Assembly (NCBI GenBank): GCA_036925085.1 | Contig: JAUPFP010000015.1 | Location: 581,001 to 645,000, forward strand | Direction: 5' to 3' | Length of the DNA: 64,000 nt | DNA from: Brachycybe producta | Taxonomy: Eukaryota > Arthropoda > Diplopoda > Playtdesmida > Andrognathidae | Shown here: positions 27,284 through 60,825 of the stretch, in pieces | How positions within the stretch are numbered: the first letter of the stretch is position 1 | Layout: the number at the start of each line of letters is the position of its first letter | Notes under the pieces: generated by a model | The model's input: the letters and a program-made list of their open reading frames with translations, nothing else | What the model was told of the DNA's origin: nothing | Database searches by the model: none | Position numbers and translations under genes: made by a program

Positions 27284-30200
27284 CTACTGATCGACGGCGA
27301 CCACCTTGATCTCGTAAACGGTATCCTCGCGAAGTTCACTGATTTTGTGGCTTTTAGTGTACGGTACATTTTCTATTGTGGTCCAGTCATCGTCATTCTT
27401 TTGGTCCTTGTACGAAACAGAAAATGAGCCAGCTGACCCTCGCGAATTCCAGCCGACATTTAACTCAACACCTGGCCCTTTGATGAAAAAAGTTCATTGG
27501 AAGAAAATCATAAATTACTGATTTTATGGCCAAATAAAAAAGAAAATGAAATATTGTTTAAATTTTACAGCTTAAAAAAACATTCTTCGTCACTTTTTCT
27601 TGCAGTGAAAAAATGTGGTGACGTTTAGAGTTGATTTACATATTTAAAAATTAATTTGTAGAAAATATGACCTTTAGATGTAAAGTAACAACTGAAGGTC
27701 TCATTCCTAGCAAGAATGTTGGGAACTTGGGATAAAAACTGAGACAAAAATACATCCAAAATTGTATCGAAAATGTAAAATTTAAATATTCTAAACGAAA
27801 ACATTTTTCAAACAAAATACCTGATGTTCACTTAATGTATCTTTGTTTTTTGAATAACAAGTGATTTTAAAAAAATATAAATGAAGTATTTTGATTTTCT
27901 ATAATGTGGTTTTAAAGTGTAAATGCCTCTTGAACTGTCGATTATTCTGTCTTTCAGGTGCAAAATAAAAACAAACTTGAATATGTTTTAGAAACAAGAA
28001 GGGTAGCTCAATTACTTAAGGTTATTTTCATGTTGATATCTTTCAAAATAAACGTTTTATGTGAGTTTAGAAATGACCCAGCTTTAATCAGACAAAATTT
28101 TTTTTGAATTTTTGTTTATAAAAAGTTTATTTGGAAAGATATCAACGTGAAAATACCCTTAAGTGATTGAGTTACACCATTATATTTTCTAAAACACTTT
28201 TTGAGATTCAAGCCTTTCCCGGACATAAAAACACTTCGATTTTTGGACGTTTTTTTGGGGGGGGGGGGGGAGAGTTTCTACCTGATTGAATTTGAAGACA
28301 TTTTAAAACTTTTGAGGACTTCTGGGATCAGTTGAGTCCTCTAGAGGCCTTTTCAGGGAATATGCCCTGTAAATATTTTTTTCTGATTCTGGCCGTTTTT
28401 TTAAAAAAAAAACTTAAAAACCATCAGTTTTAAATTTTGTAGATTTTGTGGTTAAACTCTATATTTCAGATACAGCTTCGGATGCATTTTATTCAAGTGC
28501 GAACAACACCTTGTGTGTCACTTGCACTGACATAATAAGTTACTTAAGAGTGACACTGTGCCGTGCACCAGTATAAATTAGACACGGCATATATCTTTAA
28601 ACCCAAACTTACGAAGGAATCGTGGCGGTGGCTGCGGTGCCGGTTGCACTAAACACAGAAACAACCAAAAATTTAGAACATACAGATTTTAAACGATTCG
28701 GCCATTTACAATTAATACCTGCTATGAAACTAAATATTTCCTGGATGTCGCTTGATACTGAGTGTGGTCCGTCGACTGCGACCACTCTCACCTCGAAAGT
28801 TCCCCGTCGGATGTCCTCGATTTCGATAAAATCTCTTTTTGTCTCATTTTTTGTTCTTTGCCACTCCGTTTCGCCTTTTTTTCTGTACTCTACGTAGAAA
28901 TGGTTTCCCGGATGACCGCTTAGGTTCGGATTCCAATTAACCCTGACACCGGTTTCTCGTCCTTCTGGTGTCGCTTCCAAAGTATACATTGAAAACACTG
29001 GTTTATCTGGAGCTAGATTAAAAATAAACGATTATTAGGTGGTTTACAAGTAAATTTGAAAACAAACACAATTAAGATAAACATTTACATAATAGGAATA
29101 AACTATTCTAGAAGCAACTTTGAGAAAATATTCAAAGTTTATTAAAAACTAGAATAATAGGTGAATAATGTTAACAAATATTTTCATGGCTATATCTTAA
29201 AAAATAAACTTTTTAATGCATTTGTTGCAAAAACCTTATAAATTTCAATTTCAAATTGATATAAAAAGTTTATTTTTAAAGTTATCATCATAAAAGTATA
29301 AAGTTGAATCTGAAAGAAAAAGATTACTTTTACTTTACACAGACAAGAAATGTTGTTACAATCATACTTTGAACAGGCTTCGTCACTGCTTCCACGGTTG
29401 CTGGACCTCCTAGTCCTGCGGCTGTTGAGGCTCTCATTACGATTTTATAACGGGCGCTCGGTTCGAGGCCAACGAGTTTCACGGTCGTCACTTTGAGATC
29501 GCTTATTACTAGTTTTTGTTCGCCCTTCGGTAGATTTGATTCCGAGGAAACTTTATAACGAAAAGAATTCAGAATGTTATATTTAAATGTACTTAGAGGC
29601 AAAAAAAATCTTGTATTTCTTTTTTGATGTTTTTAAAGTTAAATAATTTCAATTCTATTAGTTGATTGTAGAATTCCCTAAACTATGATTAAGATACTAA
29701 CTTCCTGGATGGCGTTGGTGCTCATAAGATATGTGATATCCAGCGAATTTTCCGTTGATTTCCTTCGGCTGAGTCCAATTGAGTTTCAGAGTACTGGATC
29801 CCATCGCTACAACGTTAAACAAAGGGAAAGGTCCGGGAACTAAAAATAACAGAAATATTACAAGATGTTGTCAAACATAAATATTTATATTCTAATAAGT
29901 AAAACTTGCTTCCTTCTGGAGTGATTGTGAGGATTTTACTCGGAGGTCCATTGAAACGACTGTCAACTACTAAAACTCGAACATAGTTTTCAACGGAAGG
30001 TACTAAATTGTTGAGCTCGACACTTGTCACGTTCAAAGGGACGACAATTTCTAGACGATTTTCCCATTCATCATTTTTGCTCCACGTTTGAATCTAGAAT
30101 TTAACAAGAAAAGTTTTATAAGTCAGCTATTGCAAAATTATACAACTGAAAAAATAACAGATCTAGAATAAACACACTGGTTATATAGTAGTACACTTTA

Positions 30201-33200
30201 AAATAAAATTAAAGCGCTTTTAGAAACTAGAAGAGTAACTGAAGAACTAGTTTAGAAAACACGTTTAATTCCTATTTAAGCTGGTGTGCAATTTAAAACA
30301 CGCTTAAATAGGAATTAAAAGCGATTTCGAAACTGGTTCTTCAGTTACTCTTCTAGTGTCTAAAAACGCTTTCATTGTATTTTAAATGAAATTACTTAAA
30401 TGTACATCAAACTCTTGTTTATTTTTTTTTTCAAGCGCAAAGTTAAGAAAAGCGAGAAAGTGTTTTAAAAACTAGAAGGGTCGCTCAAATAACTTGCATT
30501 AAAAAGCTTAATGTATTTTGAAAGATAGCAACACATAAATACCCTTAAGTAATTGAACTACCCTTCTAGTTTCCAAAACACATTCAAGTTTTTTCTTCAT
30601 TTGTTGCATTTGAAAAACAGAATGATCAGACTTCGAGAGGCGTTTACACTTTAAAACCACCTTAAGGACCTACAAAACCGATAACTTCAAAGTACCTTAT
30701 AACCGTCGAAGACACCATAAACACTGGCATCATTAATAGGATCCCATGCGACGATCGCAGTCTTATTATTGATTAACTTTGACATTACGAGGTTCTTCGG
30801 ATTCTTCTCTGGTCCTGTAAAAAAAGCAAAACGAAATAACTTAAAGACCACGTTAACGACCAACCACACGAACACTTTCGCACAAAACAAGACTAACACA
30901 CCTTTTCCGTTAAATACACGAAACGTCTTGGAGTTGACAATAAACGCATAAGCTGGATAACCCACTATAATAATATAATTATATATATTAAAATAAAAAT
31001 ATATACCCTACATATAAAATATACACGAAATTCAACATTCCTCCTTTCGAATGTATAAATGTGATGCAGTCGCCCGGTGGACCATCGTGAAGTTTGTTGT
31101 AGGCCATTACACAAACCCTACTTCTGATGCTGCTTTCATTGAGAGGGACGTGTAACGAATTGACGTTCGGACCGACCGTGTGTACTGCACTGCGAGAAGT
31201 CTTCTCACTAATCAACGATACCACTCGGATCTGAAATTTTTAATACAGCAGTTTTGTCATTTAGCAAAGGGTGATCGTAACTCTTGACACCCTCAAAGCC
31301 TCCTGGTCACACGTGTTCAAAAATATATACACGTATAAAGATATAGGGCCTACTTTTGACATTAGTGAGCTGTTAATGTACGTGCCACTGTGGCCTCACG
31401 AAGCATTCTTCAATGCATATAAACCTTTTTAGATTTTTGGCCGTTTTTTAAAAAAAGTTAAACGAACTTTACTTTTTTTTTTTGCTTTTTTAAAAATATT
31501 TTCAACTTTGTTGAGTTAATAGACTTTTAAACTTTTTGGGGCTTCTGTGGCCTCTTCAGGTTTCTGAGACCTCCTGAGACATTTATCAATGCATTTAAAG
31601 ATTTTTACAATTTTGGCCAATTTTTGAAAAAGGGAATTCGTTTTTTTTTAAGTCGAAAACGACTTTATTGCATGTTGTTTCTAATTTTCAAATTTATTGA
31701 GTTATTTTTATTGTTTAAGCTTTTTGGGACTTCTGTGGCCAGTTGAGGCTTCCTGAGGCAATTTTCAAGGCATTTAAACGTTTTTAGAATTTTGGCCGTT
31801 TTTTGAAGAAAAAAAAACACATCCTAGACTTGACTTTTTTTGTAGCTTTTCAAATTTGATAATTTTATCAACTTTTTATAAATCTTCTTAAAACTTCAGA
31901 GGCGTGGTGAGCTTTCCCTGAGGCTTTTTCGGGGCGGTTTCAAAGATTATCAACCCTATAAATAAAAGAAAACCTTGTAGCCCTGAAAATGACCACGAAT
32001 GCTGTCCAATGGAACTGGATCCCAACTGATTGAAACATTTCCACGATAATTTACCGTACGACTGTGAGAAACCACATTTGTCGGACCCAAAAGTGGTCCT
32101 GAAAAATTAATTAAAAAATTAAAAATTGAAAACAAGAACATTCCAAAGTAGTGATAGGAAGTTCGTACGATCGTCTCCGGAGTAGCCAATAACGGATTCG
32201 GCTGGATGTCTCGAGCGCCCTAAATCATTGTAAGCCTCAACTTTGATATCGTATGGTGTGAAAGCCGGTAGATCGTTTATAACCAGCCTCTCTTGCTGCC
32301 AATCGGTCACTTCCTTCACCTGCCATTCCATTTTGCTATTGGCCGGCTTCCAGAAAACTCGATACAAAAATCCAGGACCTTGATGTTCCCATACATGCAT
32401 TTTAGTCCAAGTTATGACCATGTTGTTTGAAGTGGTTCCGTGACCTTCCACGTTGAAAGGATTCCAGTGAGGAATGTGAGCTTCCTCAGTGCAAATTACT
32501 GACTGTGTGGCAACGCTCGGCAAACTCAATCCGATCTCGTTGTATGCAACCACGCGAAAAGTATAACTGCCCGATGATTCGATAGGAACCTCATGGCTCC
32601 GTTTAGAGGCTGGGATATTATAAACAGCGTTTTCCAACATATCATTTGCAAAACCCGTATTGTAATGAATACTGTACTCCAATATTGAAGCAGTGTTGTT
32701 TCCAGTTGGTTCCCACTGAACGATGGCCGATTCCTCTTTGCATTCCACATTCAAAAGCCGTGGAGCACTCGGTGGTTCTTTAAAAAGAAAGCAAAAAAAT
32801 CATAAGAATTCAAGTGGTTTTAAAGTGTAAACGCCTCGCAAAGTATGATTATTTTGTCTTTCAGTTGCATAATGAAGAGAAACATATGGAAGTGTTTTAG
32901 AAACTAGACGGGCAGCTCAATCTCTTAAGAGTATTTTTCAATTACCAGGACTATAAAAAGTTTATTTTAACAAATAACATGAAAATCAGTATTGGGAAAT
33001 AACTGTCCAAAAGAAATGAATTACTCTAAATTGCTTTTTTTCTGTAATAAGTAATTCAGCACATTCCTTTTAAATGTGATTTGTAATTACTTTCTAATTA
33101 CTTTTCAATTAGTTTTTTGTTTTTGTAAAATGCCTGATGTCGAGTGAATGATAATTTTATTTGGTCACTCAGAGATAAGATTTGCATCCTTCTGGAGTTA

Positions 33201-36200
33201 AATAACATTGCCTGCTCATTGCCAGCCCAATGTCCACCAAAAACCTCATTTATTTAAATGAATGTCTTCCTGTCCTTGAGGCGTTATGACGAGGCAAATT
33301 TTTAAAAAATTTATTGCATGTGAACAGGATGAGCGACAATGGAAATGATGGATGAAATACATTCCCAGTGATGACTACATGACAAGAATGTCTTCAGGTC
33401 CAGTGTGGAATGCACGATTCAAAAGTTAGGCCAATTCAAAGTAGGGTTTGTTGAAGTATTTCTATGGTTCCTCATGACAATGCAACTTCGAAAATTCATT
33501 GCATATGAAATGATAAAAGTTCTATTTTGAAAAGTAATTAAATTACTTTGAGAGTACTATAAGTAATTGTAATTGCTCATTTTGAAATCTCGCAACTGTA
33601 TTTAATTATTTTTACTCATGTAATTAGGTAATTGTAGTTACCGATGTACATACCCTTAAGTGATTGAATTTAACTAACCTTCTATTTTCGAAAACACTTT
33701 CTAGTTTCTCTTAATTTGGCTACACAATGAGAAGAGTTCGAAAATCAGCTCTTCAGAAACCATTTTAAATTTAATTTTTTTTATTTACATACATTTATTT
33801 AAGAGTTAAATAAATATTTTCAAACTAGTGGGGTAACCCGTCATAAATGACGGGAGCATCTAGTTTCTTTTTGTGTGACTGTCCGGTTGTCATGAAGCAA
33901 TTCGCCTTGACCACTTGTGTTTTTATAAGCACCTTAATATTGTTACAGGTATGTGAAGACAGGGAGATCCAGTCGTGTGCCCCGCCCCTTTATGACTGTC
34001 AGACCAAATATCAACCAATTGGAAATTGAAAAGAACGGGGCATGTGACATCAGACGACATAACAAAATAATTAAAAGTTGCTGGCCCTCATAAAAAGGCG
34101 GAGAAAACGACTGTATTTTACTGTCTTTACTTGCCTGTCCTTACTATTGTTTGGATTCTTGGATCGGGAGAGTGCAACATAAAGTTGACCATGAGAAAAA
34201 AGCAGTTCATTTAAATTTCAATCTGATTAAGTTTTTGTCCTAAAACAATTTACCCTAAAGAAACATTTGCCCTAAAGGGAGATATTGCCCTAAAGGGAGA
34301 TATTGCCCTAAAGGGAGATATTGCCCTAAAGGAAGATATTGCCCTAAAGGGACATTTGCCCTAAAGAACCGTTTGCCCTAAAGGGACATTGCCCTAAAGA
34401 GACATTTGCCCTAAAGGGACATTTGCCCTAAAGAGACATTTGCCCTAAAGGGACATTTGCCCTAAAGGGACATTTGCCCTAAAAGGACCTTTGCCCTAAA
34501 GGGACATTGCCCTAAAGGGACATTGCCCTAAAGGGACATTGCCCTAAAAAGACATTTGCCCTAAAAAGACATTTGCCCTAAAGAGACATTTGCCCTAAAG
34601 AGACATTTGCCCTAAAGGGACATTTGCCCTAAAGGGACATTTGCCCTAAAAGGACCTTTGCCCTAAAGGGACATTGCCCTAAAGGGACATTGCCCTAAAG
34701 GGACATTGCCCTAAAGGGACATTGCCCTAAAAAGACATTTGCCCTAAAAAGACATTTGCCCTAAAAGACATTTGCCCTAAAGGAACATTTGCCCTAAAAG
34801 GACATTTGCCCTAAAGGGACATTTGCCCTAAAAAACATTTGCCCTAAAGAGATGTTCCCCTAATGAGTAGTCTAAATATACAGTAATTGGTTTTAGGGCA
34901 TATGTTCCTTGAGGGCAAATAGTTTTAGGGAAAATGGTTTTAGGGCAAGTGGTTTTAGGGCAAATGTTCTATTAGGGTAATTAGTTTTAGGGTGAATGGT
35001 TTTAGAGCAAGTGTTCTTTGAGGGCAAATAGTTTTAGGGCAAATGTTTTTAAGGGCAAGTGGTTTTAGGGCAAGTTGTTTTAGAGCAAATGTTCTATTAG
35101 GGTAAATAGTTTTAGGGTAAATGGTTTTAGGGCAAGTGTTCCTTGAGGGCAAATAGTTTTAGGGCAAATGGTTTTAGGGCAAATGGTTTTAGGGCAAATG
35201 GTTTTAGGGCAAATGGTTTTAGGGCAAGTGGTTTTAGGGCAAATGTTCTATTAGGGTAAATGGTTTTAAGGAAAATGTTCCATTAGGGTTAATTGTTTTT
35301 ATGGCACAATTGCCTGTGATAAACTGTAGTTTAATTTTGCAACTATTATCCCCTCCCCTTTTTATATTTGAAATAGAAAATGTGTTTTTCATTTTCTCTG
35401 ATGTGCGCATGCGCGTCGTTTTTTTTTTCTACTAATTTCATTTCAATTTCAGTCACCCCTCCCACTTTTCCTCCCTCCACGTTTCTCTCTCGCCCCCCCC
35501 CCCCTTCTACACTTTCCATCCAACCTTTTCCCCTCTCCAATTTAATATCATGGGGTTCTTGGATGAGAAGGGTGTAACATATAGTTGACCTTGAGAAAAA
35601 AAAAGCTGTTCATTTCTTCATTTATTTAAATTTATATAAATTCCGATGTGCTTCAATGGTTGTACAGCGTTACTTCAGACAGACAGATAGATAGATAGAT
35701 ACACAGATACACAGACCTGGGATATTATATATATAATTATCGCAAAAAAAAAGTCATACGAAAATGCTCTTATCATAACATAATCACCTGCTATTCTAGT
35801 TTCTAACACATATTGATTTATTATCAACTAGTTAATTTTCATTAAACTATGCAACGTGGCTTTTAACTAATCTTAGACCGGCTTCAGATGGACCACTTTG
35901 TGACGCTACTTTGTAGTGCCACAAATTGTTTGACGCGACTTGCTTTAATTACACGAACCACCATATTGAAAATAATAGCCTGCTGTAAACACGGGCCACT
36001 GGTATGATCTTGATCATCATAGACATTAGACAAACTGGCGGTGGTTGCCACTTGTGGCAGGACTCAACCACTCAACGCCACTGTGTTTCAAAAAAAAATA
36101 CGGTGACTCTTGTGAACAGCCCTATAATATAATCAATGGTTTGTTAAAAATTACCACTTTATGTGGCGCCATAAAGTGGTCATGCGAAGCGGACCTTAGA

Positions 36201-36414
36201 CTTAAGTTTTGCTTGAATATTTTTACAATTTCAATTTAAACAATGATAAAAGGTAAGCGTATTTTTTACGATATTAACCTGTTATGATGGGAGACTTATC
36301 GTCAGATGATCTTATAATAGTCAAAGCACTACAGAGCGCTGAACAGACCAAAACGCCGAACAGAAATTGTGCAGTTGCCGAAGAGCAACGACGAAGACAC
36401 CATTTGGATCCCAT
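27284..36414 (-). CDS. Nrg-like: N5: secreted FN3-only neuroglian-like protein
   Basis: Exons, from the start: 36414-36279, 32777-32169, 32098-31974, 31230-31041, 30964-30902, 30814-30696, 30093-29910, 29839-29702, 29550-29368, 29012-28719, 27477-27284; about 744 residues. Exon 1 encodes a signal peptide (MGSKWCLRRCSSATAQFLF then a hydrophobic core). It joins in phase directly to FN3-1 (EPPSAPRLLNVECKEES), so there is no Ig domain. FN3-1 and -2 contain the neuroglian-type GPGFLYRVFWKP. FN3-3 appears twice (31230-32098 and 29910-30814), followed by FN3-4, FN3-5 (NPNLSGHPGNHFYVEYRKKG) and a last FN3-like domain ending VVAVDQ-stop. The 63-base exon at 30902-30964 is phase 1-1, so it could be skipped; it resembles nothing I know. 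No membrane segment is visible. The long first intron is full of mobile elements. Two donors are non-canonical: GA at 31040 and GC at 29909. Confidence 0.75.
27986..28197. mobile_element. Family A element in the last N5 intron
   Basis: A nearly complete copy: TTTTAGAAACAAGAAGGGTA at the left, TGATATCTTTCAAAATAAAC inside, the matching TTTGGAAAGATATCAACGTG in the right arm, and ATTTTCTAAAACAC at the right end. Confidence 0.75.
29840..29909 (-). other. GC-AG intron, N5, FN3-3/FN3-4 boundary
   Basis: On the minus strand the exon ends CCAGAAGGAA and the intron starts GCAAGT. The acceptor is TTTTTAG before TTCCCGGACC. Phase 1 joining gives a TPEG-I-PGPF linker and keeps both FN3 frames. This is the same position at which N1-N4 have GA. 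Confidence 0.8.
30211..30372. mobile_element. Long-armed hairpin element with family A ends
   Basis: The outer ~37 bases at each side (AAAGCGCTTTTAGAAACTAG and onward to CTGAAGAAC) are inverted repeats with only one or two differences. The inner arms CTTAAATAGGAATTAA / TTAATTCCTATTTAAG also pair. The whole block folds almost end to end and lies in an N5 intron. Confidence 0.75.
30462..30581. mobile_element. Family A element, internally deleted
   Basis: The left end TTTTAAAAACTAGAAGGGTC and the right end ACCCTTCTAGTTTCCAAAAC flank a shortened interior that keeps one copy of TATTTTGAAAGATAGCAAC. It lies in the N5 intron next to the hairpin element. Confidence 0.7.
30965..31040 (-). other. Apparent GA-AG intron in N5 (GAATGT donor)
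   Basis: The exon encoding the second half of the first FN3-3 copy ends AAAGGAG and the intron would begin GAATGT. Using the nearby GT (GTTGAA) gives phase 2, which fits neither the next mini-exon nor the exon after it; both need phase 1. Less certain than the other cases because the downstream mini-exon is unrecognised. Confidence 0.5.
31385..31930. repeat. Degenerate tandem repeat, about 160-190 bp period
   Basis: Three to four successive units share the order CTTCTGTGGCC, CCTGAG, CAATGCATTTAAA, TTTTGGCCGTTTTT then a T-rich tail and AACTTTTTGGG. It lies in the N5 intron between the two halves of the first FN3-3 domain. A related single unit may lie at 28200-28400. Confidence 0.6.
32895..33697. 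mobile_element. Family A element split by another insertion
   Basis: The left part (TTTTAGAAACTAGACGGGCA to ACATGAAAATC) and the right part (ACATACCCTTAAGTGATTGA to TTCGAAAACAC) are the two pieces of one family A element. About 660 bases, roughly 32987-33646, interrupt it. The insert begins CAGTATTGGGAAATAACTG and contains paired AAGTAATT / AATTACTT motifs, resembling non-autonomous hAT elements by memory of that family. Its right boundary is not sharp. Confidence 0.65.
34150..34212 (-). pseudogene. Helitron helicase fragment (motif VI), copy 1
   Basis: The minus strand reads FSHGQLYVALSRSKNP. GQLYVALSR is the conserved motif VI of Pif1-like helicases as found in Helitron Rep/helicase proteins. 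No further helicase motifs were found, so this is a 3' fragment. Confidence 0.75.
34240..35310. repeat. Inverted minisatellite arrays of GCCCTAAA units
   Basis: From about 34250 to 34865 units of 16-18 bases built on TTTGCCCTAAAGGGACA are repeated over thirty times. From about 34890 to 35310 the complementary form (TTTTAGGGCAAATGG and variants) is repeated, so the whole block is a large imperfect palindrome. Sub-patterns repeat in order within each arm, indicating higher-order duplication. Confidence 0.9.
35553..35612 (-). pseudogene. Helitron helicase fragment (motif VI), copy 2
   Basis: The minus strand reads FSQGQLYVTPFSSKNP, a mutated version of copy 1 (VALSRSKNP has become VTPFSSKNP). 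It lies in the same orientation on the other side of the minisatellite array. Confidence 0.65.
35877..36205. mobile_element. Inverted-repeat element with GACCACTTT ends
   Basis: The left end TTAGACCGGCTTCAGATGGA followed by CCACTTTGTGACGC is matched by the right end (GGCGCCATAAAGTGGTCATG then CGAAGCGGACCTTAGAC) in reverse complement. The interior is non-coding. It lies just downstream of the N5 signal-peptide exon, in intron 1. Confidence 0.6.
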
Positions 36415-37266: not shown

Positions 37267-40200
37267 CTATTTGTGTCGCGGCCACTCCTGTCCACATGTG
37301 GTCTCAAAAGCATTCATCTCTCGTAAACGGTTTTCTCGGATTAGAAGGCTCCCACTGTACGAAAAATTGTCGATTTTCGAATATTTATTTTTCTTCTCCT
37401 TCCTATTAAATTTAACGGGTAAAGAGCCATCCACACCGTCTTTCGTTTAGGTATTTTAGACAACACTTAAATTTAAAATATACATTTTTTAGATTTATCA
37501 CGAGCCTGAAACACAAAAAAAAAATCGGTGCTGCAGTGGTGAGTGTCACATACCTGTTTTTCCCGTTTGTATTTCCAAGACATCGCTCGAATCTTTGTAG
37601 CGACCGTTGACTGCCACCAACATTATCTCGTAAGATCCAGGTAAGAGTTCGGTGACTTCCACCTTGACATCGTTCCAGACGACTTTTGTCATTTGCCAAT
37701 CTGTCTTTCCCTTATGCCTGTACTGAACATAAAAATGGGTTCCAGGATTGCCAGTTACGTTCGGAATCCAAGTGACCCTAATTGAAGTAAGGCCATCCGT
37801 AGACTCTAATCGAGTCCATGTAAATGCCGGTTTATCTGGAGCTATAAAAATGACAAAATGAATTTATGTTTGAAGGTGCTAAACATATACTGGGTGTCGT
37901 ACGTAACGTAAGACCGTTTGCACTTTCCGTCCATACTTCGATCGAATGCGAAGCTCCGAATCCGGCTCCGGTTGAGGCGCTGATTGCGATCATATACAAA
38001 GTATTGGGATCGAGGCCAACCAGTTTAGCTGACGTTGAATTTGAATCACTTATCAGTGGTTGTGGTTTGATCATAGGTTGGGATTTTTCTTCATCAACTA
38101 TTTTAAAATGTCATAAGATAAGTCGTAAGTATAAGAGGTACCGATATCACGAAAATCGATGCTGACCTTTCTCGTAGATTATATGATAGGCCTTGAGGAT
38201 GCCGTTGATATGGTTCGGTTTCGACCAAGTGAGCCACAGTGACGTAGATCCCATTGGATAAGCATTAAATGAAAAAACCGATTCTGGTTCTATTTTTAAT
38301 CACATAAATTAATATAAAAACACTGGTATAAATTGAAAAATCAACTTTCTTCCTTCAGGAGTTGTGATCTTAATGACATCGCTTGGTGGCCCATCGTAAT
38401 GACAGTTAAATACCAAAACACGAACAAAGTTTTCAGAAAAAGGTGTTAAGACGTCAAGTGTTTCATTCGAAACGTTTCCATTTATGACACTTTCTTTGTA
38501 ACTTTCAGAATTATTTTTGTTGTTATAGATTCGGACCTTGAATTTTTTAAAAAAAATATTAATAAATCAAAAACTGGAACAAAAAAAATTAAACTTAAAT
38601 AAAAATCACCTTGTAGCCCTTCAAGTGACCACCAACAGACTCTGGTGGAACTGGATCCCAGGCAATTTCAGCCGTGTTAGAATCAACTACACGAAGCAAT
38701 CTAAGATTTTGTGGACTGAAAAGTGGTTCTGAAAATGAATATAATTTAATCTTTATTATAATCAGAAGTGGTCCTTTGACGCACTGCTCTCTCCGGAGTA
38801 TCCAAACACCTCCTTGGCTTCTACGGCTGCTGGTCCCAAATCATTGTGAGTCTCAACTTTGACGATGTACGGCACAAATGTCGGTTGGTCGCAAATGATC
38901 AATTCGTTCTGCTGCCAATCAACCACATCCTCAATCTGCCATTCCATTTCTATATCGACACGTTTCCAGAACACGCGGTAAAAAAATCCCGGTCCGTTGT
39001 GTTCGTCGGGACTCATTCGACGCCACGTTATGACTACATTGTTTGGAGATGTTCCGTGAACAGTTACATTCTCACCATTGATTGAAGAAATATCGGGTGG
39101 CGTTTGGCAAACGGACGAGTGATTGCTTCGTGCACTACTTCCGATCTTGTTATGTGCGGTGACACCAAACGTAAAATCAGTCCATGGTTTGAGAGGAACC
39201 TCGTAAACGTGTTTCGTGGCTGGAATACAATCATTGACAATTTTCCATTCGTCGGGATTGTAGCTAGTATTGTACTGAATGCTGTAGAATAGGATCGGAG
39301 CATTGCAGTCTTTATTTGCCTGCCACTTTACGACAGCCGTTTTCTTGTTGCATTCTACACTCACAATCAGTGGAGCATTTGGAATGTCTAATAAACAAAA
39401 CATTTAAAGAAATTAGCCACTTTGTTAAGCTACGTGAAATGCGTCGACAACTTTATACTGATACTTTGTACGACGAGAGTGGTTTCCGCAGTCGCATTGT
39501 CCAATCTAGTCCTTGCAACGCAAGCATACACTCCCGAGTCCGATTCTTTTATATTCGAGATAGTCAAAACAGTTTCCGCCCATATGAACATTCGAGGATC
39601 CCCTTCAACATAAATATCTTGGCCGTTCACCTGCCACGCGACAACCAAAGATAAGTTGTCGTTCCACTCAACGCTACAACGGAGCGTGACAGACTTCCCA
39701 ACAGTCACTTGGTGGTAGTTTTCTTCGGCAGTGATTCTTGTCTTTTCTCTAACTTCTAGCTGACCCATAGCACCATCAGATTCCACTTGACCCAGACTAT
39801 TTTTTGCAATACATTTATATCGGCCTGCGTCCGTGAACAATGTTCGTACTATTTGCAAATCTCCATTCGGTTGTAAGACATAGTGACCACCGGTCAGTTC
39901 CTTTCCACTTCGAAGCCACTGGACATGAGGTGGAGGTGTACCGAAGACACGGCAACGAAGTGTCACAGATCCATCTTCGACGGTCTCGTAAAATTCCTCG
40001 GGAGGTTCTGTTATGTTTGGAGCAAGACCTGAAAATGAATCGTTGAAACTTTAGCCACAGCATGTTTCCAGATCAAATTTACATAACATTGTTGCACAAA
40101 GTGTACTAATGTTATTGATGTTAGTGTTAATTACAGATTATTATTAGATTTAGATTTAAATATTAACCTGCATATAATGCAAGGAACAAAGATAACAATT

Positions 40201-40349
40201 TAAAAAAGTGCTAATTTACGTTTAAAACAAACCTCACCTTGTGCACTGCATAAGGAAGAAAAGGCCCCAAAAGTGAAAACACAAAAAAACAGACGACAGA
40301 AAAATGTTCGAAGGCAAAAAACATACGAAAACCTGTTTAAAAAGCTCAT
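37267..40349 (-). CDS. Nrg-like: N4: secreted Ig5-6 plus FN3 neuroglian-like protein
   Basis: Exons: 40349-40238, 40028-39465, 39387-38785, 38728-38610, 38536-38350, 38289-38167, 38097-37903, 37841-37554, 37439-37267; about 787 residues. The signal-peptide exon (MSFLNRFSYVFCLRTFFCRL to LCSAQ) splices straight to the exon carrying both Ig5 and Ig6 (NITEPPEEFYETVEDGSVTL), so Ig1-4 are absent. FN3-1/-2 share one exon with NGPGFFYRVFWKR; FN3-3 and FN3-4 are each split by an intron; FN3-5 has GNPGTHFYVQYRHKGKT. The last domain keeps only its second half: DGVDGSLPVKFNRKEKK and IDNFSYSGSLLI align with DVEGSYNVKYSEKK and INDVPFNKSVTI of N1. An in-frame stop just upstream shows that the first half is gone. 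The FN3-3/-4 intron has a GA donor. No membrane segment is visible; role inferred as a secreted adhesion-type protein. Confidence 0.82.
38290..38349 (-). other. GA-AG intron, N4, FN3-3/FN3-4 boundary
   Basis: The exon ends CCTGAAGGAA and the intron starts GAAAGT. The acceptor AAAATAG precedes AACCAGAATCG. Phase 1 joining gives TPEG-K-PESV; the GT at +5 would shift FN3-4 out of frame. Confidence 0.8.
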
Positions 40350-48782: not shown

Positions 48783-51700
48783 TCAATCAATCTTATCCTC
48801 ATCCGCCTCTAAAAAAACATTGATCTCGTAATCGATTCCTTTCGAAAGACCCTCGATCGTGAAGCGCTCGTTGTACGGCACGAAGTCCATCTTCTGCCAT
48901 TCACCCTTACTTTTCTCCCTATACTTTACAATAAATGATTCACTGAAATAGGGTATCGTAGCTAACTTCCAAGTGATCTTTAAATCTAGTTTTCCATCTT
49001 TGGTTTCCACGTGAGTCGAAGAAATCGGTTCGGCTGAAGCTAATTAAATTTTCATAAAAAAAATGTATAAATATTTACTTAAAAAACTCATTCGCAGTTC
49101 ACCTTGTATTTCCAAGACATCGCCGGTTTCTTCGTTGAGTCCGTTTACTATTACCACCATCATCTTGTAAATTCCAGGCAAAAATCCGGTAAATATGAAG
49201 TTATCTTCATTAATGAAGGCTACTTCTGTCTTTTGCCATTCTGTCACCTCATCTTGTCTGTACTTAACATAAAATTTCCTGCCAAAATAACCGTAAAAGT
49301 GAGGAATCCATGTGACCTTAGCTGAAGTATGATCATCGCTAGGGTCCACTAAAAACCATGAAAATGACGGCTTATCTAGAATAAAATAAATAATTGTATA
49401 AAAAATATCAATTCTAAGGTGCCAAAAATCCATCATCAACATGATCATGCATACAGCTCAAAGTCTCATTTCTAGTCAACACATCGATAAACGATGGCGA
49501 TCCGAGTCCGGCTCCAGTTGAAGCTTGAATTGTGATCCTGTACTTGGTGTTAGGAGCAAGGCCACCGAGATTTGTTGTTATTACGTCAAGATTACATATC
49601 AGTGGTTTCGATGGACTCAAATATGGGCCTGCGACTAAAAGTAATGCATTCGTTTCAGTTTAAATTTCAAGTGTTGAAACACTTCTTGCATAAAAAAGCT
49701 TGAAAGCAACGATGTACGACAACTAATACCAACTTTTCTGATAAAATAACTGATAAAATAATAGGTGACCGTTCGTTTGCTCTGGTCTCAACCAAGTGAG
49801 ACACACCATGGTAGATCCAATCGAAACAGTATCAAGCGAAGAAACCGGTCCTGGCTCTATTTGTAATGTCAACTGGAATTAAAACTTAAAATCGATTATA
49901 AAATCAATAGATTAACTTTCTTCCTTCGGGAGTTATGATTGCGATGGCGTCGCTCCGTGGCCCGTCGTAAGGATTTGTAAACACTCGAACTCGAACATAG
50001 TTATGAAAAAACGGTGTCAGAATGTCAATCACTGCACTGGAAACATTTCCTTTAACGACTTTTTCTTTAGCAATTTCATTATCTTCTTCGGAGTTATAGA
50101 TTTGAATCTCGAGTTTAAAAAAAGAGCAATTTATTCAAGCTACGGATTCGAAAAATTGACGTAAATGATAATCACCTTAAAACCCTGAAAATGACCCCTA
50201 ATGGAGTCCAGTGGAACTGAATCCCAGGCAATGACAGCCGTTTTAGAGTCAAATACACGAAGCAGTCTGAGATTCCTTACGATCACTTGTGGTTCTGAAA
50301 ATAATATTTTTTTTCACGGATACAGTTTCATCTAAAACATGCGGCCGAGGACCTACTGTGCTCTCCGGCATATAAGATGACCTCTTCGGCTTCATCTGCC
50401 GCTTTTCCTAGTTCATTATGAGACTCGACTTTTACAACATACGGCACATTAAGCGGCTGATCACTTAGAGTCAAACTGTTCCTCTGAACAACATCTTGAA
50501 TCTGCCAATTATCAACTCCGGCGTCGGCTTGCTTCCAGAACACACGATAAAAAAATCCAGGACCATTTTGTTCTTCAAGACTCATAGGCTTCCAGAATAT
50601 GGCAAAATTACTAAAAATTTTTGCCGTACTTAATACGTTGACTGGATTACTGTAGGGCACATCAGGTGACGTTTGGCAAATTGACGAGAAATTGCTTCGT
50701 ACACTGCTTCCAACCTTATTGTAAGCAGTGACACCAAATGTATAGTTGGTCCACGATTTAAGAAGAGAAATCTCATATATAAGTTTCGTGGCCATAATAC
50801 GGTCATCGACAGTTTGCCACACATCGGGATTGTAACTGGTATTATACTGAATTCTATAAAATTGAATCGAAGCATGGTTGTCTGCTCGTGGTTGCCACTC
50901 TATGACGGCTGATTTATTTTTGCATACGACACTCACAATCTGTGGAGCATCCGGAATGTCTAAAAAGAAAAAATCAAAGTAATTTGCCATGCTGTTAAAG
51001 TGAATTGCATCGACAACTGCAAACCTTGTACGATAAGAGTGGCTCGAGCTGTCACATTGTCCAATCTAGTCTTAGCGACACAAGTGTAAACACCCGAATC
51101 CGATTTTGTCGTATTGAAAATGGTTAAAGTGTTGTCCGCACCTAATGACAGTCGTCGATCACCCTCGAAATCTATAGTCTCACCATTGATCTGCCATTCG
51201 ATCATCAAATTTAGGTTGGCATCCGAAAACGCGCTACAGCGAAAACTGGCCGACTTTCCAGCAACAACTTCATAATCTTCTGGTACGTCAATGATGATCG
51301 TGCTTTCTCTAACCACGAGATGACCGAGAGAATCTTCGGATTCCACTCTTCCCAGTTTGTTTTCAGCTGTGCATTTATACCGTCCTGCATTTGTGAACAA
51401 TGTCTGTGCTATGTGCAAATCGCCACTATATTTTATGATGTAGCGAACATCGGTCAGTTCTTTTCCGTTTCTAAGCCACTTGATTTCAGACTGAGGCGCG
51501 CTTATGACATGACACCGTAATGTGATCGGAGAACCTTCGACAACCTCGTAAAATGCCTCCGGAGGTTCCATTATTTCTGGAAAGAGTACTGAAAATCCAA
51601 TAATTTCAAATTTTATTTACTTATTTATTTAACTATGTTGCTCTCAAAATTTGAAATTGCCAAAAAATTACAGAGAATGTGGAGGTAAAAATCTTTGAAG

Positions 51701-53472
51701 GCATAACCGAGAGCATTGGAGGCGTTACACTGATAGACGGCGGTGTCCGTTGTCGTCAAAGCCTCGATGATCATCACGGTTGCATTGATAAGTTTTCTTC
51801 GAGGATTTGCAGCTGCAACTGTAAAATACGTTGTTATTACGAAGAATGTGAAGAATTAACACTAAAAACACTTACGGCTCAAATCGACACCGTTGACGAA
51901 CCACTTGACAGTTGGTTCAGGTACTCCGAATGCAACACACTCGAAGCGAGCACTTTCACCTTCGGCTGCGTACGTAGGATCTGGAGAAGTTATCCAATAA
52001 GGAACGGCTATATACAGAAAGTGATTATAAGAATAAGGAGTGCTTTTTTTAACAGTACACTGAGAAGCACTTGGATTACATATTTACTGGTATCGTACAT
52101 TGAACAGTAATGGAAGTGGCGCACGACAGAGCATTTCCAATTCCGTTACTGGCAGTACATTCATACATTCCGGCGTCTCCGAAGTCAATGTTACGAAGCC
52201 TCAACGTCTTTCCGTAATTTTCAAGACTATAACGACTGGAATACAACCGTTCATTCTTTTTCTTCCATCGTATTTCAGGCAAAGGCCTAGAAAAATAGAC
52301 ACATTTAAAAAGAATTTCATTTTAATTAAACTCAATCCTTTTTGTCATCCCATAAAATAATATTATTCTTACTTTCCACCAAAAATACAATGAATATCTT
52401 GATGTGCTCCTCTTCGTGCCACAATATTCTGTGGCGAACAATACTGTTTTAGAGGAGCAATGCCCCAACCTTTACCAAAAAAAAAAGAAACAAATGTCAA
52501 CACCATCCCAGTACACTATTAAAACCCATAATTACGTTCAGACGGAATAACCGTCAGTTTAATCTTATTTCCAGTTTTGTATTCATTTATAAATACGATG
52601 GAGGCACAACAGGTATAGTAAGCGTCAACGGAACTGTCTCTCATCGACACGCTCGAGATCCGGAGTGCGCCTTCGGGATCGACAGTTGTACGAGAATTGT
52701 TGATGCTCTTGAGGACACCACTTGACGTTTGAATCATCCAGAAGATATCTGGCTTCGGAAAACCGATCGGAATATTGCAAGAAAGAGTCACTGATTCCCC
52801 TTCCTCGACCACGATCTCTTGCGGTTTAACTTCAGGAAAGGATCCGAGTTCTAAAACGACAAGACACATCGACATATATATAAGCGCGCCTAAAACGAAA
52901 GCGAATCATTTTACCAGATCTCCTGACAAAACATGCGTTCGACACGGACGTTCCGAATTTGTTAGTAGCCTCGCAGTGATAGTAACCTTCGTCTTCAGAT
53001 CTCGGTTGTGTCACGACCAACGATCCTCGGCTAGGTTGCTGTACTATCCTGTTACCTTGCTCATGGAAGTCGTATTGTTTCCCATTTTTGAACCACTTGT
53101 AACTATAATGAGAGAATAATTAAAGCATGGTGCGGTGTCGGTTGCGATTCCGACGTTAATACGAACGTAGGTGCCGGAGATCCGGATGCTTCACACTCTA
53201 GAACGAACGGTTTTATTGTGTCGGTGTGATCTGTGGCCACTTGAAACCAGAGGTCTTCCGGTGGCAGTTGCCTGAATATCGTAGGCGGCGATTCAACTGT
53301 TAAAAAGAGACATATGTCAAAAAATTGCGGACGTCCCCAAAGTTATTTATTTAAAAAAATACTAACATTGTGCACCGCATAATGTATAAAAGGTTTCGAA
53401 AGTCAGAAAATAAAACAGGAGGTGAAAAGAAAATGTTCGAAGAACAGATGAAAATCTCAATAAGATTCCCAT
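48783..53472 (-). CDS. Nrg-like: N2: secreted six-Ig neuroglian-like protein
   Basis: Exons: 53472-53367, 53296-53167, 53102-52915, 52850-52536, 52469-52373, 52286-52099, 52007-51876, 51818-51672, 51588-51025, 50959-50357, 50294-50176, 50107-49921, 49856-49734, 49634-49455, 49375-49103, 49039-48783; about 1202 residues. Signal peptide MGILLRFSSVLRTF to YTLCGAQ. Ig1 (YKWFKNGKQYDF, YYHCEATNKFG), Ig2 (SINNSRTTVDPEGALRISSV), Ig3 (IHCIFGGK then WKKKNERLY), Ig4 (CVAFGVPEPTVKWFVNG, YQCNASNALGYAFKDFY) and Ig5-6 (CVAKTRLDNVTARATLIVQG) are all present. FN3-1 to -5 follow with NGPGFFYRVFWKQ, and a sixth FN3-like domain ends LEADEDKID-stop. Exon layout is identical to N3. No transmembrane segment, FIGQY motif or GPI-type tail. 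GA donor at 49920. By family knowledge neuroglian/L1 proteins mediate homophilic neural and epithelial adhesion; a secreted paralogue as modulator is inference. Confidence 0.88.
49857..49920 (-). other. GA-AG intron, N2, FN3-3/FN3-4 boundary
   Basis: The exon ends CCCGAAGGAA and the intron starts GAAAGT. The acceptor CAAATAG precedes AGCCAGGACC. Phase 1 joining gives TPEG-K-PGPV. The GT inside GAAAGT would be phase 2 and out of frame. Confidence 0.8.
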
Positions 53473-55389: not shown

Positions 55390-58300
55390 TCAGTGCCAGT
55401 CATTCGGATTCCAGTTTATTTGAGTAACGTCTAACAAGTATTCGGTTTCTCTTGAGAGACCCTTGATCGTAACACTTTTGTTGAATGGCACGTCATTAAT
55501 AGTCTTCCATAACCTCTTCTTCTCACTGTACTTGACATTATAAGAGCCTTCCACATCATGCTTTGTATGCGAGTTCCAACTGATCCTTAGATCAACGTTT
55601 CCATTGTTGGATTCTACACGAGTCCAAGGAGAAGTCGGTTCGAGTTTGTCTAAATAGATCACAAAAGTACAATTGTAACAACAACTAAAAGTTCCTTACA
55701 TAATGGTTTTTACGGCCTTTCGTAAGATATACGATCATAATAATAAAAATGAGTACTGTTAAATACCAGCTCGCCTCTGCTACCTGTTTCGATCGTGTTT
55801 ATTTCCACTACGTCACTCGACTCCTCGTATTCTCCGTCAACTGCGACCACCTTCATCTCGTAAATCCCAGATACGAGCCCCTCGATTACGTCGTTATCAT
55901 CGTTCAACACGTCGTCTGCCTTTTGCCACTGTGTTTTTCCCTTTAGCCGGTACTGAACATAGAAGTGGCTTCCAGGATTCGTGTCTAAGTTCGGAATCCA
56001 AGTGACCACTATGGTAGTTCCAGAATTTTCCATCCGCTTCCACGAAAATGATGGCTTTCTCGGAGCTATACAGTGATTAATAAAATAAATAACCGAAATT
56101 GAAACTCTTGTACCGATATGCCGCACAATATGTCGACCATCGTACGTTTCGGAGTGTCACTCGCTGTTCTGTCTTCGACGAAGTACGGAGTTCCAAGTCC
56201 TGCTCCCGTTACGGCTCGAATTGCGATCCTATATCTGGTGTTAGGTTGTAGGCCATCCAGTTTTGCCGAAGTTGATTCTGGATTATTTATCGGCGACTTT
56301 CGCTCAACCATCTCATTTAATCTGGTATTTTCGACTGTTCAAAATATATTACCAGACACTCATTACTCATTTATGAAATGCATCAAAACTGATGTTCAAA
56401 CCTTTTTGATAGAATATGCGATAACCCATGAGGTTGCCATTGATTTCATTCGGTTTCGACCAAGTGAGCCACAGTGCCTTAGATCCCATCTGATAAGCTT
56501 GGAACGAAGCAACTGTTCCAGGTACTGTTTGTAGTAATCAAGTTCAATTAATCAAATGAAGTTATTTTTATTCAAGTTCAAAAATTAACTTTCTTCCTTC
56601 AGGTGTCGTGATAATGATGATGTTGCTCGGAGGTCCCTCGTAATTACTGTTAACTACTCGAACTCGAACAAAGTTGTCGGTGTAAGGTGTCAAAATTCCT
56701 AGCGAATACTCCGATACGGTTCCTTTAACGACACTTTCTTTAATATTTTTCAGACCTTCTTTTTTACTATATGTTTCCATCTTAAAAAAATTACAGAAAT
56801 AAAAGTCAATGTATAAATGTAAGTAAGTGAGTGAGTAAGTCAATGTAAATAAGAATTTCACTTTGTAACCCTTGAAGTAACCACGAACAGACTCTGGTGG
56901 AACTGGATCCCACGTAATTATAGCCGTGTTATGATCCACCACGCTAACCAATCTAAGATTCTGTGGACTTAAAAGTGGTTCTGTAAATAAAAATGACAAT
57001 ATTAATCAATACGATTCATATCTTAAAGGTTGTGTAATTTAAACAAGGTTTTTTTTATAAATATATAAAAATATTATAAAATCGGCTGTATTTTATGAAA
57101 ATATTGATTCATGTAAACAGATTTTTGTCTGTTTATGTTTAAATACTACAAACAATTTTAAAATATTCAATTTCATTTTCATTGGTAAGCGAAATTTTTT
57201 TAATTGAATATTTTATTATAATTGAGACAATTATTATTATAATAAATAATTTAAAAATAATCAATTAATTTTTCATTTTGTAAACATATTTTTATAAAAG
57301 AATAACATTTTTATAAAATTACAGCCGATTCTGTCAAAAGTTACGTTGAAGATTAATTGAAAGTCACAATTTATGACAGTATCAATGGGCCTCAGTTGAT
57401 CTTTGGCTTAAAGTTAATTAAGATCATATTAAGCTTGTATATATATATAATTTAAATCAAATAAACCTGAATTTTTTTTTAAATCATCGATTTTTTTTTT
57501 ACATCAATTGTAAAGGAGTTTCATACAATAAAAGAGAACCGTCAACATACTGTCCTCTCCTGAGTGACCGGTGACAACTTCAGCTGCAACGTTCGCTTGT
57601 CCTAGCTTATTGTGAGCCTCCACTTTTATATCATACTGCACATAAGTCGGTTGGTCCTCTACGATTAATTCGGTCTCACGATTATCGAGAACATCTTTGA
57701 CTTGCCACTCCGTTTCATTGCCAGCCCTCTTCCAATGCACTCGATAGAACAGACCAGGTCCGTTGTCTTCTTCTTCAAGCATTCGCTGCCACGATATGTG
57801 CAATTTGTCCGCATACGTTTCTCGACTTCGAACTTGAGTCGGATTACTGTACGGCACATCGGGTGGTGTTCGGCAAAGGGTGAAGTTAACACTTCGTTCA
57901 CTAGTTCCAACTTTATTGTATGCCGTGATGCCAAAAGTGTAGCCGATTGCAGGTTTGAGAGAAACCTCGTATGTCAGGTCTGGTGTCGGAATAACTTCAG
58001 CTTCAACAGTTCTCCAGTCGTAGTAACCCAAGCTAATATTGTACTCGATGCGGTACGATCGGATTGGATTGCCAGCCAGGATGGTTCCGTTTGGCTGCCA
58101 CTTTAGTACTGCTGACCGCTTATCAATGTTGCAAGTCACACTTGTAAAAATTGGTGGCTTTGGAACATCTACAGTAAATAATAATAAATAACATGATTTT
58201 TTTTTACACAAATCCGATTTTTAAAATATGAGGTTTCAAAATAAAAAGCTTGGTGGCAGTGTTTGAAAATGTTTTAGAAACTAGAAGAGTCAAGAAACAA

Positions 58301-60825
58301 ACTGACTAGATTTTCAGATTAATATCTTTAACGAGAAGCTTTTATGACCTTTTGAATGTGGCCGAATATCTTGGCTTTTCTTTCAATAAAAAGAAAGATT
58401 TTCCCTTTACTTTTTTATTTTTTATTGTAATTTAAATTTATTTTTAAAATTATAAAAAAAAGCTGGCATAATTAATTTCTAGATCCTAAAAACGCAACCA
58501 AACAAACTAAGTACCAAGTGAACCGTCTGATCAATATTCTAACACAAAAAAAAATGTTTAATGAATAATTGAACGCTGTTTTTCTAGGTTGAAACCCTGC
58601 TCTTGAGGGTTCAAATGTTCAAGCTGAAGTATTATGTTTTCTTTTAAAATTTGTAAACTTAAGCCCTGATATAAAATGACTGTAAACTTTTTTGTAAACT
58701 ATACACAAATAAATAATTAATTAATTTAAATTTAATAACTAATTATAATAAATTTAAAATGATATAATTATCATTTTTAAGTATGTCACAAGAAGCATGT
58801 TTTAAAAGATATCCCCAGGAAAACATTTTTATAAATATTAACCTACTATTCTAGTTTATAACAAACTTCGATTTTTCTCAAAATGGTTGAAAGCAAACTT
58901 TTGTTTAGATTAATTCAAAATTTCTTAGAAAGTAGAATATTAGGTGAATATTTTTATGATGTGTTTTAAAACAATCTTTTCAAAATTACTTTTCATTAAT
59001 TCTTGATGCAAAAATCGAGTAGAATTTCATCATTTTCAAATTGCAATAAAAAGTATATTTTTGAAGATAATACCGTGAAAATAATTTTAGCATATGCGCC
59101 TGGTATTCTAGTTTCTAGTAAATCTCGAAAGTTTTGCTTAAAATCTGCTTCTAAAAAAGTTTACATAAAATTTTATACATCCTAGAAATTTCTGTCAAGC
59201 CACAATTTAAGTTTATTGAACGTTAAAGCGAACCATGAACGGTGAGAGTGGCTTGAGCCGTCACATTGTCCATTCTAGTCTTTGCAATACATTTGTACAC
59301 TCCAGAGTCCGCGTCTGTCGTCCAAAAGACGGCTAACGATCTATCCACCTTCATAAATGTTTTCCCACTGTCACTCCTGGTATCAATCTTCGCTCCATTG
59401 AAATACCACTCGACAACCGTAGTTAAGTTATCATCCGAAGCAACTTCACAGAGAAAAACAGCATTGTCCCCGGCAGTCACTTCGATGTCTTCTGGAGGCG
59501 TTGTAATCCTCGTCTTTTCTCGAACCACGAGATGACCATCTGAATTTCCAGAAACATATTCCCCAATTAGATTTGCCACGATACAAGTATATTGCCCCTC
59601 ATCAGTGTCCAAAACATTCGAAATGTGCAAATCTCCATTCGGCTCAACTGTGAAGCGTTTTCCTTCCAATTTGGAACCATCACGAGTCCACTTTACGTAT
59701 GCACTCGGAAACGCAACGAAACGGCAGCGAAGCGTGACGGCAGTTCCTTGCATGACCTCGTACAATTCTTTGGGAGGTTCGGTTATGATTGGAATGATAT
59801 CTGAAAATGAATTAAGTGAATATCATAAAAAGCATCATAACAATAAATATAACGAAACCTACAAAGAACATTGAGATAAAAATTCCTGAGTATAAGGCCA
59901 GCACTACTGGAGGCACGGCACTGATAAACAGCTGTATCGGTAAAGTCCAGATCCTTGATGGTCAGCACGGTCGGACTGACAAGCTTCCTTCGAGGATTGG
60001 CAGCAGCAACTGTAAAATATATTATAATTTTCAAGACATCCACTAAGTTTGAAATTAATAAAATGATGCTTACGGCTCAACTTGACACCGTTGACGAGCC
60101 ATTCGACGGATGGTTGCGGATCACCCGAAGCAACACACTCGAAGCGGACATCTTCATATCGGTCGACGTTTGTGTCGTTCGGAACAGTGATCCAACGAGG
60201 AGCACCTAACAAAATCTAATGTGAAACGCAGGTTGTCTACATTTGAGACAAAGAAAACGAAAACTAACCAAATTTCTTAACAGAAGCAGAATTGGACACC
60301 GAAGTACCATACTTATTGGTGGCCTCACAGTGGTAAACTCCCTCATCTCGAGGTGTAGGATGAGACACAACCAGAGTACCCTTATACCGATTCCGCAATG
60401 TCCATCGAGGTTTTGACTCATAGTCGAATTGCTGGCCGTTCTTGAACCACTTATAACTGTACATGCAAATTACTGACAAAGTCAAACTCTAAACAATTGA
60501 GTCAATGTACTTACGTCGGGTGTGGATTTCCAGTGGCCTCACATTCTAATACTAATGTTTCAGTACCCTCCTCCTTGCCTTCTTTGGTGGCCACCTGAAA
60601 TCGAATGCCTTCAGATGGTGGTTCTTTGAAAAACGAAGGTGGTGATTGAACTTAAAGATAAAATAAATCAAGGTCTTTAATTTAGAGCTGTTACTGTTAT
60701 AATATAATGTGAAACTCACTTTCGTCACGACTTAACTCTGCCAAAGTTCCATAGATTAAAATGCCAAAAAGAACGATTCGGAAAGTATGGCACCTCCCAA
60801 GACTTAACCATGTTTCAAATCCCAT
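55390..60825 (-). CDS. Nrg-like: N1: secreted four-Ig neuroglian-like protein
   Basis: Exons: 60825-60720, 60650-60515, 60456-60269, 60205-60074, 60009-59863, 59800-59234, 58168-57551, 56980-56862, 56780-56594, 56524-56402, 56334-56146, 56065-55784, 55649-55390; about 1017 residues. Signal peptide MGFETWLSLGRCHTFRIVLF to YGTLAELS. Ig1 (YKWFKNGQQFDY, YHCEATNKYGTSVSN) is followed directly by the Ig4-type module (CVASGDPQPSVEWLVNG, VYQCRASSSAG); Ig2 and Ig3 exons found in N2 and N3 are absent. Ig5-6 share an exon (CIAKTRMDNVTAQATLTVHG). FN3-1/-2 carry NGPGLFYRVHWKR; FN3-3 to -5 follow with NPGSHFYVQYRLKGKTQW; the sixth FN3-like domain (VDLRISWNSHTK, IKGLSRETEYLL) ends NWNPNDWH-stop. No membrane or GPI-type tail. 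GA donor at 56593. This is the most upstream gene of the array. Confidence 0.87.
56525..56593 (-). other. GA-AG intron, N1, FN3-3/FN3-4 boundary
   Basis: The exon ends CCTGAAGGAA and the intron starts GAAAGT. The acceptor ACAAACAG precedes TACCTGGAAC. Phase 1 joining gives TPEG-I-PGTV and continues into WLTWSKPNEINGN. Confidence 0.8.

What the first reader, a model, noticed from the sequence alone, without database searches (positions are those of the whole stretch)
27284..60825. Tandem array of five neuroglian-like genes that all lack a membrane anchor
Seen: five complete minus-strand reading frames, each with its own signal-peptide exon, neuroglian-type FN3 domains and a stop right after a sixth FN3-like domain. 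None has a hydrophobic C-terminal segment or a FIGQY-type ankyrin-binding tail. Known: canonical neuroglian/L1 proteins have six Ig, five FN3, one membrane span and a cytoplasmic tail. Inference: a lineage-specific family of secreted relatives that could act as soluble ligands or decoys for membrane neuroglian, or work at the basement membrane. This is the best candidate for an undescribed system in the window.
Basis: partly seen in the sequence, partly recalled or inferred. Interest (0 to 1): 0.9.

Follow-up and report, generated by a model that had tools for sequence, protein, structure and literature searches.

The report
Five membrane-free neuroglian copies, millipede
In a millipede genome the gene for a nerve-cell adhesion protein sits at the head of a row of five altered copies that have lost the part anchoring them in the cell membrane, and similar anchorless copies seem to have arisen separately in other arthropods.

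Summary
The array is real. Minus strand 60825..27284 holds five neuroglian (L1CAM-type) genes, N1-N5, with open spliced frames and no membrane span or FIGQY tail. Corrections: only N2 and N3 keep all six Ig; N1 lacks Ig2-3, N4 lacks Ig1-4, N5 has no Ig. The sixth FN3 is a copy of FN3-5 cut before its last strand, and N4 shows none. COX1 says millipede. Frames are under constraint, yet N1-N4 evolve about 4-7 times faster than N0. The wider result: the millipede Chamberlinius, an unnamed near relative and ticks also have span-less neuroglian paralogues. The tree puts each with its own lineage's canonical gene, with different C-termini, so anchor loss looks repeated (apparently three times in millipedes, once in ticks). 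Best reading: secreted L1 paralogues. N2/N3 could still bind by their Ig1-4 module; N1, N4 and N5 probably use other domains. Ligand/decoy and hemolin-like immune roles are both open. No transcript of this species was available.

The parts
55390..60825 (-). N1: signal exon, Ig1, Ig4, Ig5-6, FN3 1-5, truncated FN6 (55649-55390); 13 exons, 1017 aa; Ig2-Ig3 exons absent (a 63-bp intron in their place)
48783..53472 (-). N2: signal exon, Ig1-6, FN3 1-5, truncated FN6 (49033-48783); 16 exons, 1202 aa
41423..47343 (-). N3: signal exon, Ig1-6, FN3 1-5, truncated FN6 (41685-41423); 16 exons, 1216 aa
   Evidence: whole protein not scanned with Pfam; FN6 was
37546..40349 (-). N4: signal exon joined to Ig5-6 (Ig1-4 absent), FN3 1-5, in-frame stop 7 codons after the last modelled FN3-5 residue; no readable FN6; 719 aa plus short tail, exact end uncertain
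27284..36414 (-). N5: signal exon, no Ig, FN3 1-2, FN3-3 in two copies, FN3-4, FN3-5, very short FN6 (27477-27284); 10 exons, 723 aa; first junction and two donors uncertain
46407..46974 (-). Tract of N3 (Ig1b exon, intron, Ig2 exon) 92-96% identical to N0, against 61-87% in the other exons compared: recent gene conversion
56588..56593 (-). GA 5' splice site (GAAAGT) of the FN3-3/FN3-4 intron in N1; homologous sites begin at 49920 (N2), 43197 (N3) and 38349 (N4); a second in-phase GA lies 3 nt upstream

Best explanation
N1-N5 are secreted paralogues of neuroglian. They arose by tandem duplication of the anchored gene N0 in a millipede. In their ancestor a copy of the FN3-5 exon carrying an early stop most likely took the place of the span and cytoplasmic exons. 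Shown by sequence: the row of six genes, absence of the anchor, FN6 closest to FN3-5, one clade with N0, constraint on the frames, faster evolution of N1-N4 than of N0, and a conversion tract between N3 and N0. Inferred: transcription, secretion and function. N2 and N3 keep the Ig1-4 module used for binding in L1 proteins (recalled; hemolin and neurofascin structures match it) and most likely act as diffusible partners or competitors of membrane neuroglian. N1, N4 and N5 lack two or all four of those domains, so they more likely act through FN3 or Ig5-6 contacts.
For: Anchored N0: Bravo_FIGEY E 1.3e-22 in the spliced model; the genome search with that family gave 2 exon hits, both N0 and both under the cut-off. 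No span exon in N1-N5, with N0 as a working positive control. FN6's best match outside FN6 is N0's FN3-5 (E 1.5e-8); 9 of 10 hits lie in the N0-N5 row. N1-N4 plus N0 form a clade at 100/100; N1-N5 as a clade 89/80 in the FN3-only tree. dN/dS 0.23-0.47 in 15 of 15 pairs; for FN3-4 to FN6, 0.36-0.63 in 6 of 6 pairs, bootstrap upper bound under 1 in all six. N1-N4 carry 4.2-7.3 times more unique changes than N0 (N5 not tested). In N2 and N3 the Ig part stays closer to N0 than the FN3 part: 69 vs 47.5% and 74 vs 57%.
Against: No transcript of this species was seen. N1-N4 need an unusual GA 5' splice site. dS is near saturation, so dN/dS is rough; for FN6 alone 1 of 6 pairs has an upper bound below 1 and 1 of 6 was not computable. 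AATAAA downstream does not help: within 400 nt of the stop it is absent in N0 and N3 and present in N1, N2, N4, N5. Signal peptides were judged by hydropathy only; those of N1 and N2 are weak. Part of N3's Ig similarity to N0 is gene conversion. A whole-genome search with N2 for further copies did not complete.
Confidence: 0.74

Rival explanations
1. Hemolin-like humoral factors: the copies left the nervous system and work in hemolymph, in recognition of microbes or wounds; fast evolution and loss of domains follow from that.
For: Hemolin, a secreted four-Ig moth immune protein, matches Ig1-4 of N2 in the PDB (1bih, E 3.9e-34) and is described as close to neural adhesion molecules and bacteria-inducible (PMC9163686, passages). 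Span-less copies carry 3.0-7.3 times more unique changes than the canonical gene compared, in 8 of 8 tests in millipedes and ticks. The centipede expanded another IgSF gene, Dscam, by gene duplication (PMC4244043, passages).
Against: No expression or induction data. N4 and N5 lack the Ig1-4 part that hemolin consists of. Acceleration alone does not show immunity.
Confidence: 0.3
2. Decaying duplicates: N4 and N5, and perhaps N1, are on the way to pseudogenes; only N2 and N3 matter.
For: Missing Ig domains in N1, N4 and N5, no readable FN6 in N4, GA or GC donors at the FN3-3 end, a 3.5-kb N5 intron with satellite repeats.
Against: 0 internal stops in 5 of 5 frames, where a neutral copy of the 1273-codon N0 frame gathers on average 15-43 at 0.1-0.5 changes per site. 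The 9 pairs with N4 or N5 have dN/dS 0.24-0.47. The losses are whole exons and keep the phase.
Confidence: 0.2
3. The GA sites are not spliced: N1-N4 transcripts read into the intron and end after FN3-3, giving shorter secreted proteins.
For: No in-phase GT donor in 4 of 4 genes; the frame stops soon inside the intron.
Against: The exons downstream stay open and constrained: the 6 FN3-4/5 pairs among N1-N4 have dN/dS 0.39-0.63 with bootstrap upper bounds 0.54-0.91. GA-AG introns are common in a copepod and a tunicate (PMC7072748, passages). The rest of the donor (AAGT) is kept.
Confidence: 0.12

Closest known systems
Neuroglian / L1CAM family (N0; Drosophila neuroglian FN3 1-2, PDB 1cfb)
   Same: Domain and exon order, intron phases, phylogeny
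   Different: No membrane span, no ankyrin-binding tail, extra truncated FN6 in four genes, Ig losses in N1, N4, N5
Hemolin (moths, PDB 1bih)
   Same: Secreted relative of neural IgCAMs with an Ig1-4 module (PMC9163686 passages)
   Different: Hemolin has four Ig and no FN3; immune induction is unknown here; separate origin is assumed, not tested
Soluble L1-deltaTM isoform of L1CAM
   Same: Span-less, released L1 with signalling activity (PMC6398979, abstract and outline)
   Different: Made by exon skipping of one gene; here the loss is fixed in separate genes
Span-less neuroglian-like proteins of Chamberlinius (P0257), ticks (P0243, P0247) and an unnamed near relative (P0005)
   Same: Several Ig plus FN3s, no span, no Bravo domain
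   Different: Not known to be tandem arrays; different C-termini (short tails; in ticks two extra FN3s); separate origins on the tree
Expanded Dscam families of a centipede and of chelicerates
   Same: Expansion of an Ig/FN3 adhesion gene by whole-gene duplication (PMC4244043 passages; PMC4835542 abstract start only)
   Different: Another gene family; described in those passages as membrane receptors

Membership tests
L1CAM/neuroglian, canonical membrane form | six Ig followed by five FN3 | tested here: inconclusive
   Met in N2 and, by exon homology, N3, plus FN6; not met in N1, N4, N5
L1CAM/neuroglian, canonical membrane form | single membrane span | tested here: not met
   N0 as positive control rings in both
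L1CAM/neuroglian, canonical membrane form | Bravo/FIGQY cytoplasmic tail | tested here: not met
   both hits in the genome are N0; no relic in 144 kb; no Bravo_FIGEY match in N1, N2, N4, N5
L1CAM/neuroglian by descent | phylogenetic position with neuroglian | tested here: met
   N1-N4 sister to N0, 100/100; N5 joins them at 89/80 in the FN3-only tree
Hemolin | four Ig domains and no FN3 | tested here: not met
   fn3 matches in N1, N2, N4, N5 and homologous exons in N3
Hemolin | bacteria-inducible hemolymph protein | not testable with these tools
   no expression data for this species
Contactin (GPI-anchored IgCAM) | GPI signal: hydrophobic C-terminus | tested here: not met
   Polar C-terminal ends in 5 of 5; outside the signal region no 19-residue stretch above KD 1.6. 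Hydropathy only, no GPI predictor was run

The most novel reading that the evidence does not exclude
Arthropods have repeatedly turned neuroglian into a diffusible protein: apparently three times in millipedes and once in ticks, each time with a different new C-terminus and with several-fold faster evolution. Together with hemolin this would be an unrecognised class of humoral recognition molecules drawn from L1CAM.
Probability: 0.3. Interest if true: 0.8.

Novelty: new variant of a known kind. Interest (0 to 1): 0.6.

Why it matters
L1-type proteins are textbook membrane adhesion molecules; soluble forms are known mainly from cleavage or splicing. Here the soluble form is fixed in separate, constrained genes next to the anchored one, and it seems to have arisen more than once. 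That gives natural replicates for asking what a diffusible L1 is for (guidance, decoy or immunity), and it points to a simple route to losing an anchor: copy the last FN3 exon with an early stop.

Tried and rejected
Single giant gene, or splicing of all units to a shared span: rejected, because each unit has its own start exon and stop and the only span exon seen lies 5' of all five. Assembly or haplotype artefact: rejected; paralogues differ by 20-40% in most exons and lie on one 4.8-Mb contig. A hidden span exon: none found. One old soluble paralogue shared by millipedes: rejected by AU tests (p 7e-9; p 0.0015; p 0.009 on FN3 domains only). Gene conversion could mimic this result. The span-less row is nearer to the canonical row of its own lineage than to foreign span-less rows in 19 of 19 windows for P0257, 16 of 19 for P0005, 19 of 20 for N3, 15 of 20 for N2, 14 of 17 for N1 and 9 of 11 for N4, so patchy conversion stays possible for some. 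P0001 and P0005 come from unnamed contigs and are not known to be from one species. Polyadenylation signals: uninformative. RGD: absent from all six proteins. The scorpion row (P0266) is named 'isoform X2' and may be a splice form or partial model, so I do not count it. P0005 could be a retained-intron transcript; its DNA was not held. Other rows without a Bravo domain, many of them perhaps partial, were looked at for hydropathy only (25 proteins) and left out of the trees. FN6 relic in N4: not shown. Whole-genome search with N2 and a U1 snRNA search: not completed.

Full report
What is there. The window is C15:581001-645000 of a 295-Mb animal genome. I spliced six head-to-tail minus-strand genes by open frames, splice signals and phase. 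Five, N1-N5, lie in the window at the stated ends. The sixth, N0, starts 12.6 kb beyond the window's end and is a normal neuroglian: signal exon, six Ig, five FN3, span and a tail ending in FIGLY...SALATFV (Pfam Bravo_FIGEY E 1.3e-22). A genome search for that tail gave 2 exon hits, both in N0 and both under the curated cut-off, as expected for a domain split by introns. The row runs tail-to-tail with a laminin beta gene on the plus strand (LAMININ_IV_B, E 9.8e-18).

Which animal. The mitochondrial COX1 is nearest to millipedes: Abacion 92%, Antrokoreana 91%, Narceus 90% (Abacion is Diplopoda, the other names are recalled as millipedes).

Anatomy of the five. N2 and N3 keep six Ig and five FN3. 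N1 has lost Ig2-3, N4 Ig1-4, N5 all Ig while doubling FN3-3. Pfam agrees where it was run: six I-set stretches in N2, two in N4, none in N5, four in N1. All 150 tblastn hits of N0 and N2 in 144 kb overlap modelled exons, so no further copy lies nearby. FN6 is read in N1, N2, N3 and N5. Pfam fn3 reaches its cut-off for FN6 in N1 and N3 and stays just under it in N2 and N5. The AlphaFold model of N3's FN6 (mean pLDDT 76.5, four sequences) has six strands and no seventh; its best PDB matches are FN3 folds, 8 of them at E under 0.001. Aligned with FN3-5 of three genes, all four FN6 end right behind strand F. FN6's nearest relative outside FN6 is N0's FN3-5. The likely event is therefore a copy of the FN3-5 exon with an early stop, placed where the span exon was.

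No anchor. The span-exon scan finds N0's exon and none in N1-N5. None has a hydrophobic C-terminus. The only span exon seen lies 5' of N1-N5, so cis-splicing cannot supply it.

Are they alive? There are no stops in five frames, while 0 of 300 simulated neutral copies stayed stop-free at each of four distances. dN/dS is 0.23-0.47 for all 15 pairs, with the caution that dS is high. N1-N4 share a GA 5' splice site where N0 has GT and N5 GC; it is one of 77 modelled introns per homologous position in those genes, and the only place where the GT-only pass failed in N1-N4. Without it the downstream exons would be dead, but they are constrained. GA-AG introns are documented in Eurytemora and Oikopleura (PMC7072748, passages). 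For FN6 alone selection cannot be shown (1 of 6 pairs bounded below 1). N3 carries a recent conversion tract from N0: Ig1b 96%, intron 95%, Ig2 92%.

Relatives. The first protein search gave 349 proteins, 120 listed. The best was P0001 (canonical); P0005 in fifth place has no span (1112 aa on a 3812-nt contig, hence most likely cDNA). A second search gave 287, 120 listed. It added Chamberlinius hualienensis (a millipede) with a canonical protein (P0246) and a span-less one (P0257) on contigs of different length, and ticks whose span-less forms end in two extra FN3s. In a 20-row tree each span-less protein joins the canonical gene of its own lineage, with 5 changes of state, one of them the uncertain scorpion row. 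A single millipede clade of span-less genes is rejected (p 7e-9). Sliding identities agree best for Chamberlinius, less cleanly for others. In relative-rate tests 8 of 8 span-less rows carry more unique changes, 3.0 to 7.3 times; the two tick rows had to be compared with canonical genes of other tick species.

How it may work. In N2 and N3 the Ig part is better kept than the FN3 part. N2 matches the Ig1-4 structures of neurofascin (3p3y) and hemolin (1bih); homophilic binding by that module is recalled. So N2 and N3 could meet membrane neuroglian in solution; N1, N4 and N5 cannot use the whole module. A hemolin-like role is the main rival. Function is inference throughout.

In print? Searches with neuroglian + tandem duplication (4 papers), millipede + genome + neuroglian (0), at least four of L1CAM, tandem, secreted, paralog, neuroglian (20, all listed) and at least three of neuroglian, soluble, arthropod, gene duplication (15 of 597 listed) showed no such array by title and abstract start. 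The library lacks most subscription papers.

Noticed in passing
window 56593, 49920, 43197, 38349 (-): GA 5' splice site shared by four paralogues (GGAA|GAAAGT) where the parent gene has GTAAGT and N5 has GCAAGT; suggests GA-AG splicing in a millipede. A U1 snRNA check never got an answer.
   Followed up: partly
window 34248-35299: About 1 kb of 17-bp and 15-bp satellite units (ATTTGCCCTAAAGGGAC, TGGTTTTAGGGCAAA) inside the first intron of N5.
   Followed up: no
window 62413-62556: 6.9 units of a 21-bp repeat, 100% matching (TCTCGAGATCTCGACTTACTG), between N0 and N1.
   Followed up: no
window about 17984-25500 (+): Laminin beta gene (laminin IV type B and laminin EGF matches at 19772-21961; outer limits guessed from open frames), tail-to-tail with N5.
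   Followed up: partly
window 13251-14858 (+): 535-residue open frame with repeated TTTTQRPTVPWYY-like motifs, not identified.
   Followed up: no
G000 contigs C21, C45, C37, C18, C11, C13: Dense FN3 exon clusters, some with equal-scoring copies (C37, C18, C11), that look like other expanded FN3/IgSF arrays.
   Followed up: no
G000:C1:12697416-12698753, C17:4027703-4029047: Nuclear-looking copies of mitochondrial COX1, one nearly full length.
   Followed up: no
P0243, P0247 (ticks): Tick neuroglian-like proteins without a membrane span that carry what looks like a second FN3 1-2 pair at the C-terminus; apparently another way of losing the anchor.
   Followed up: partly
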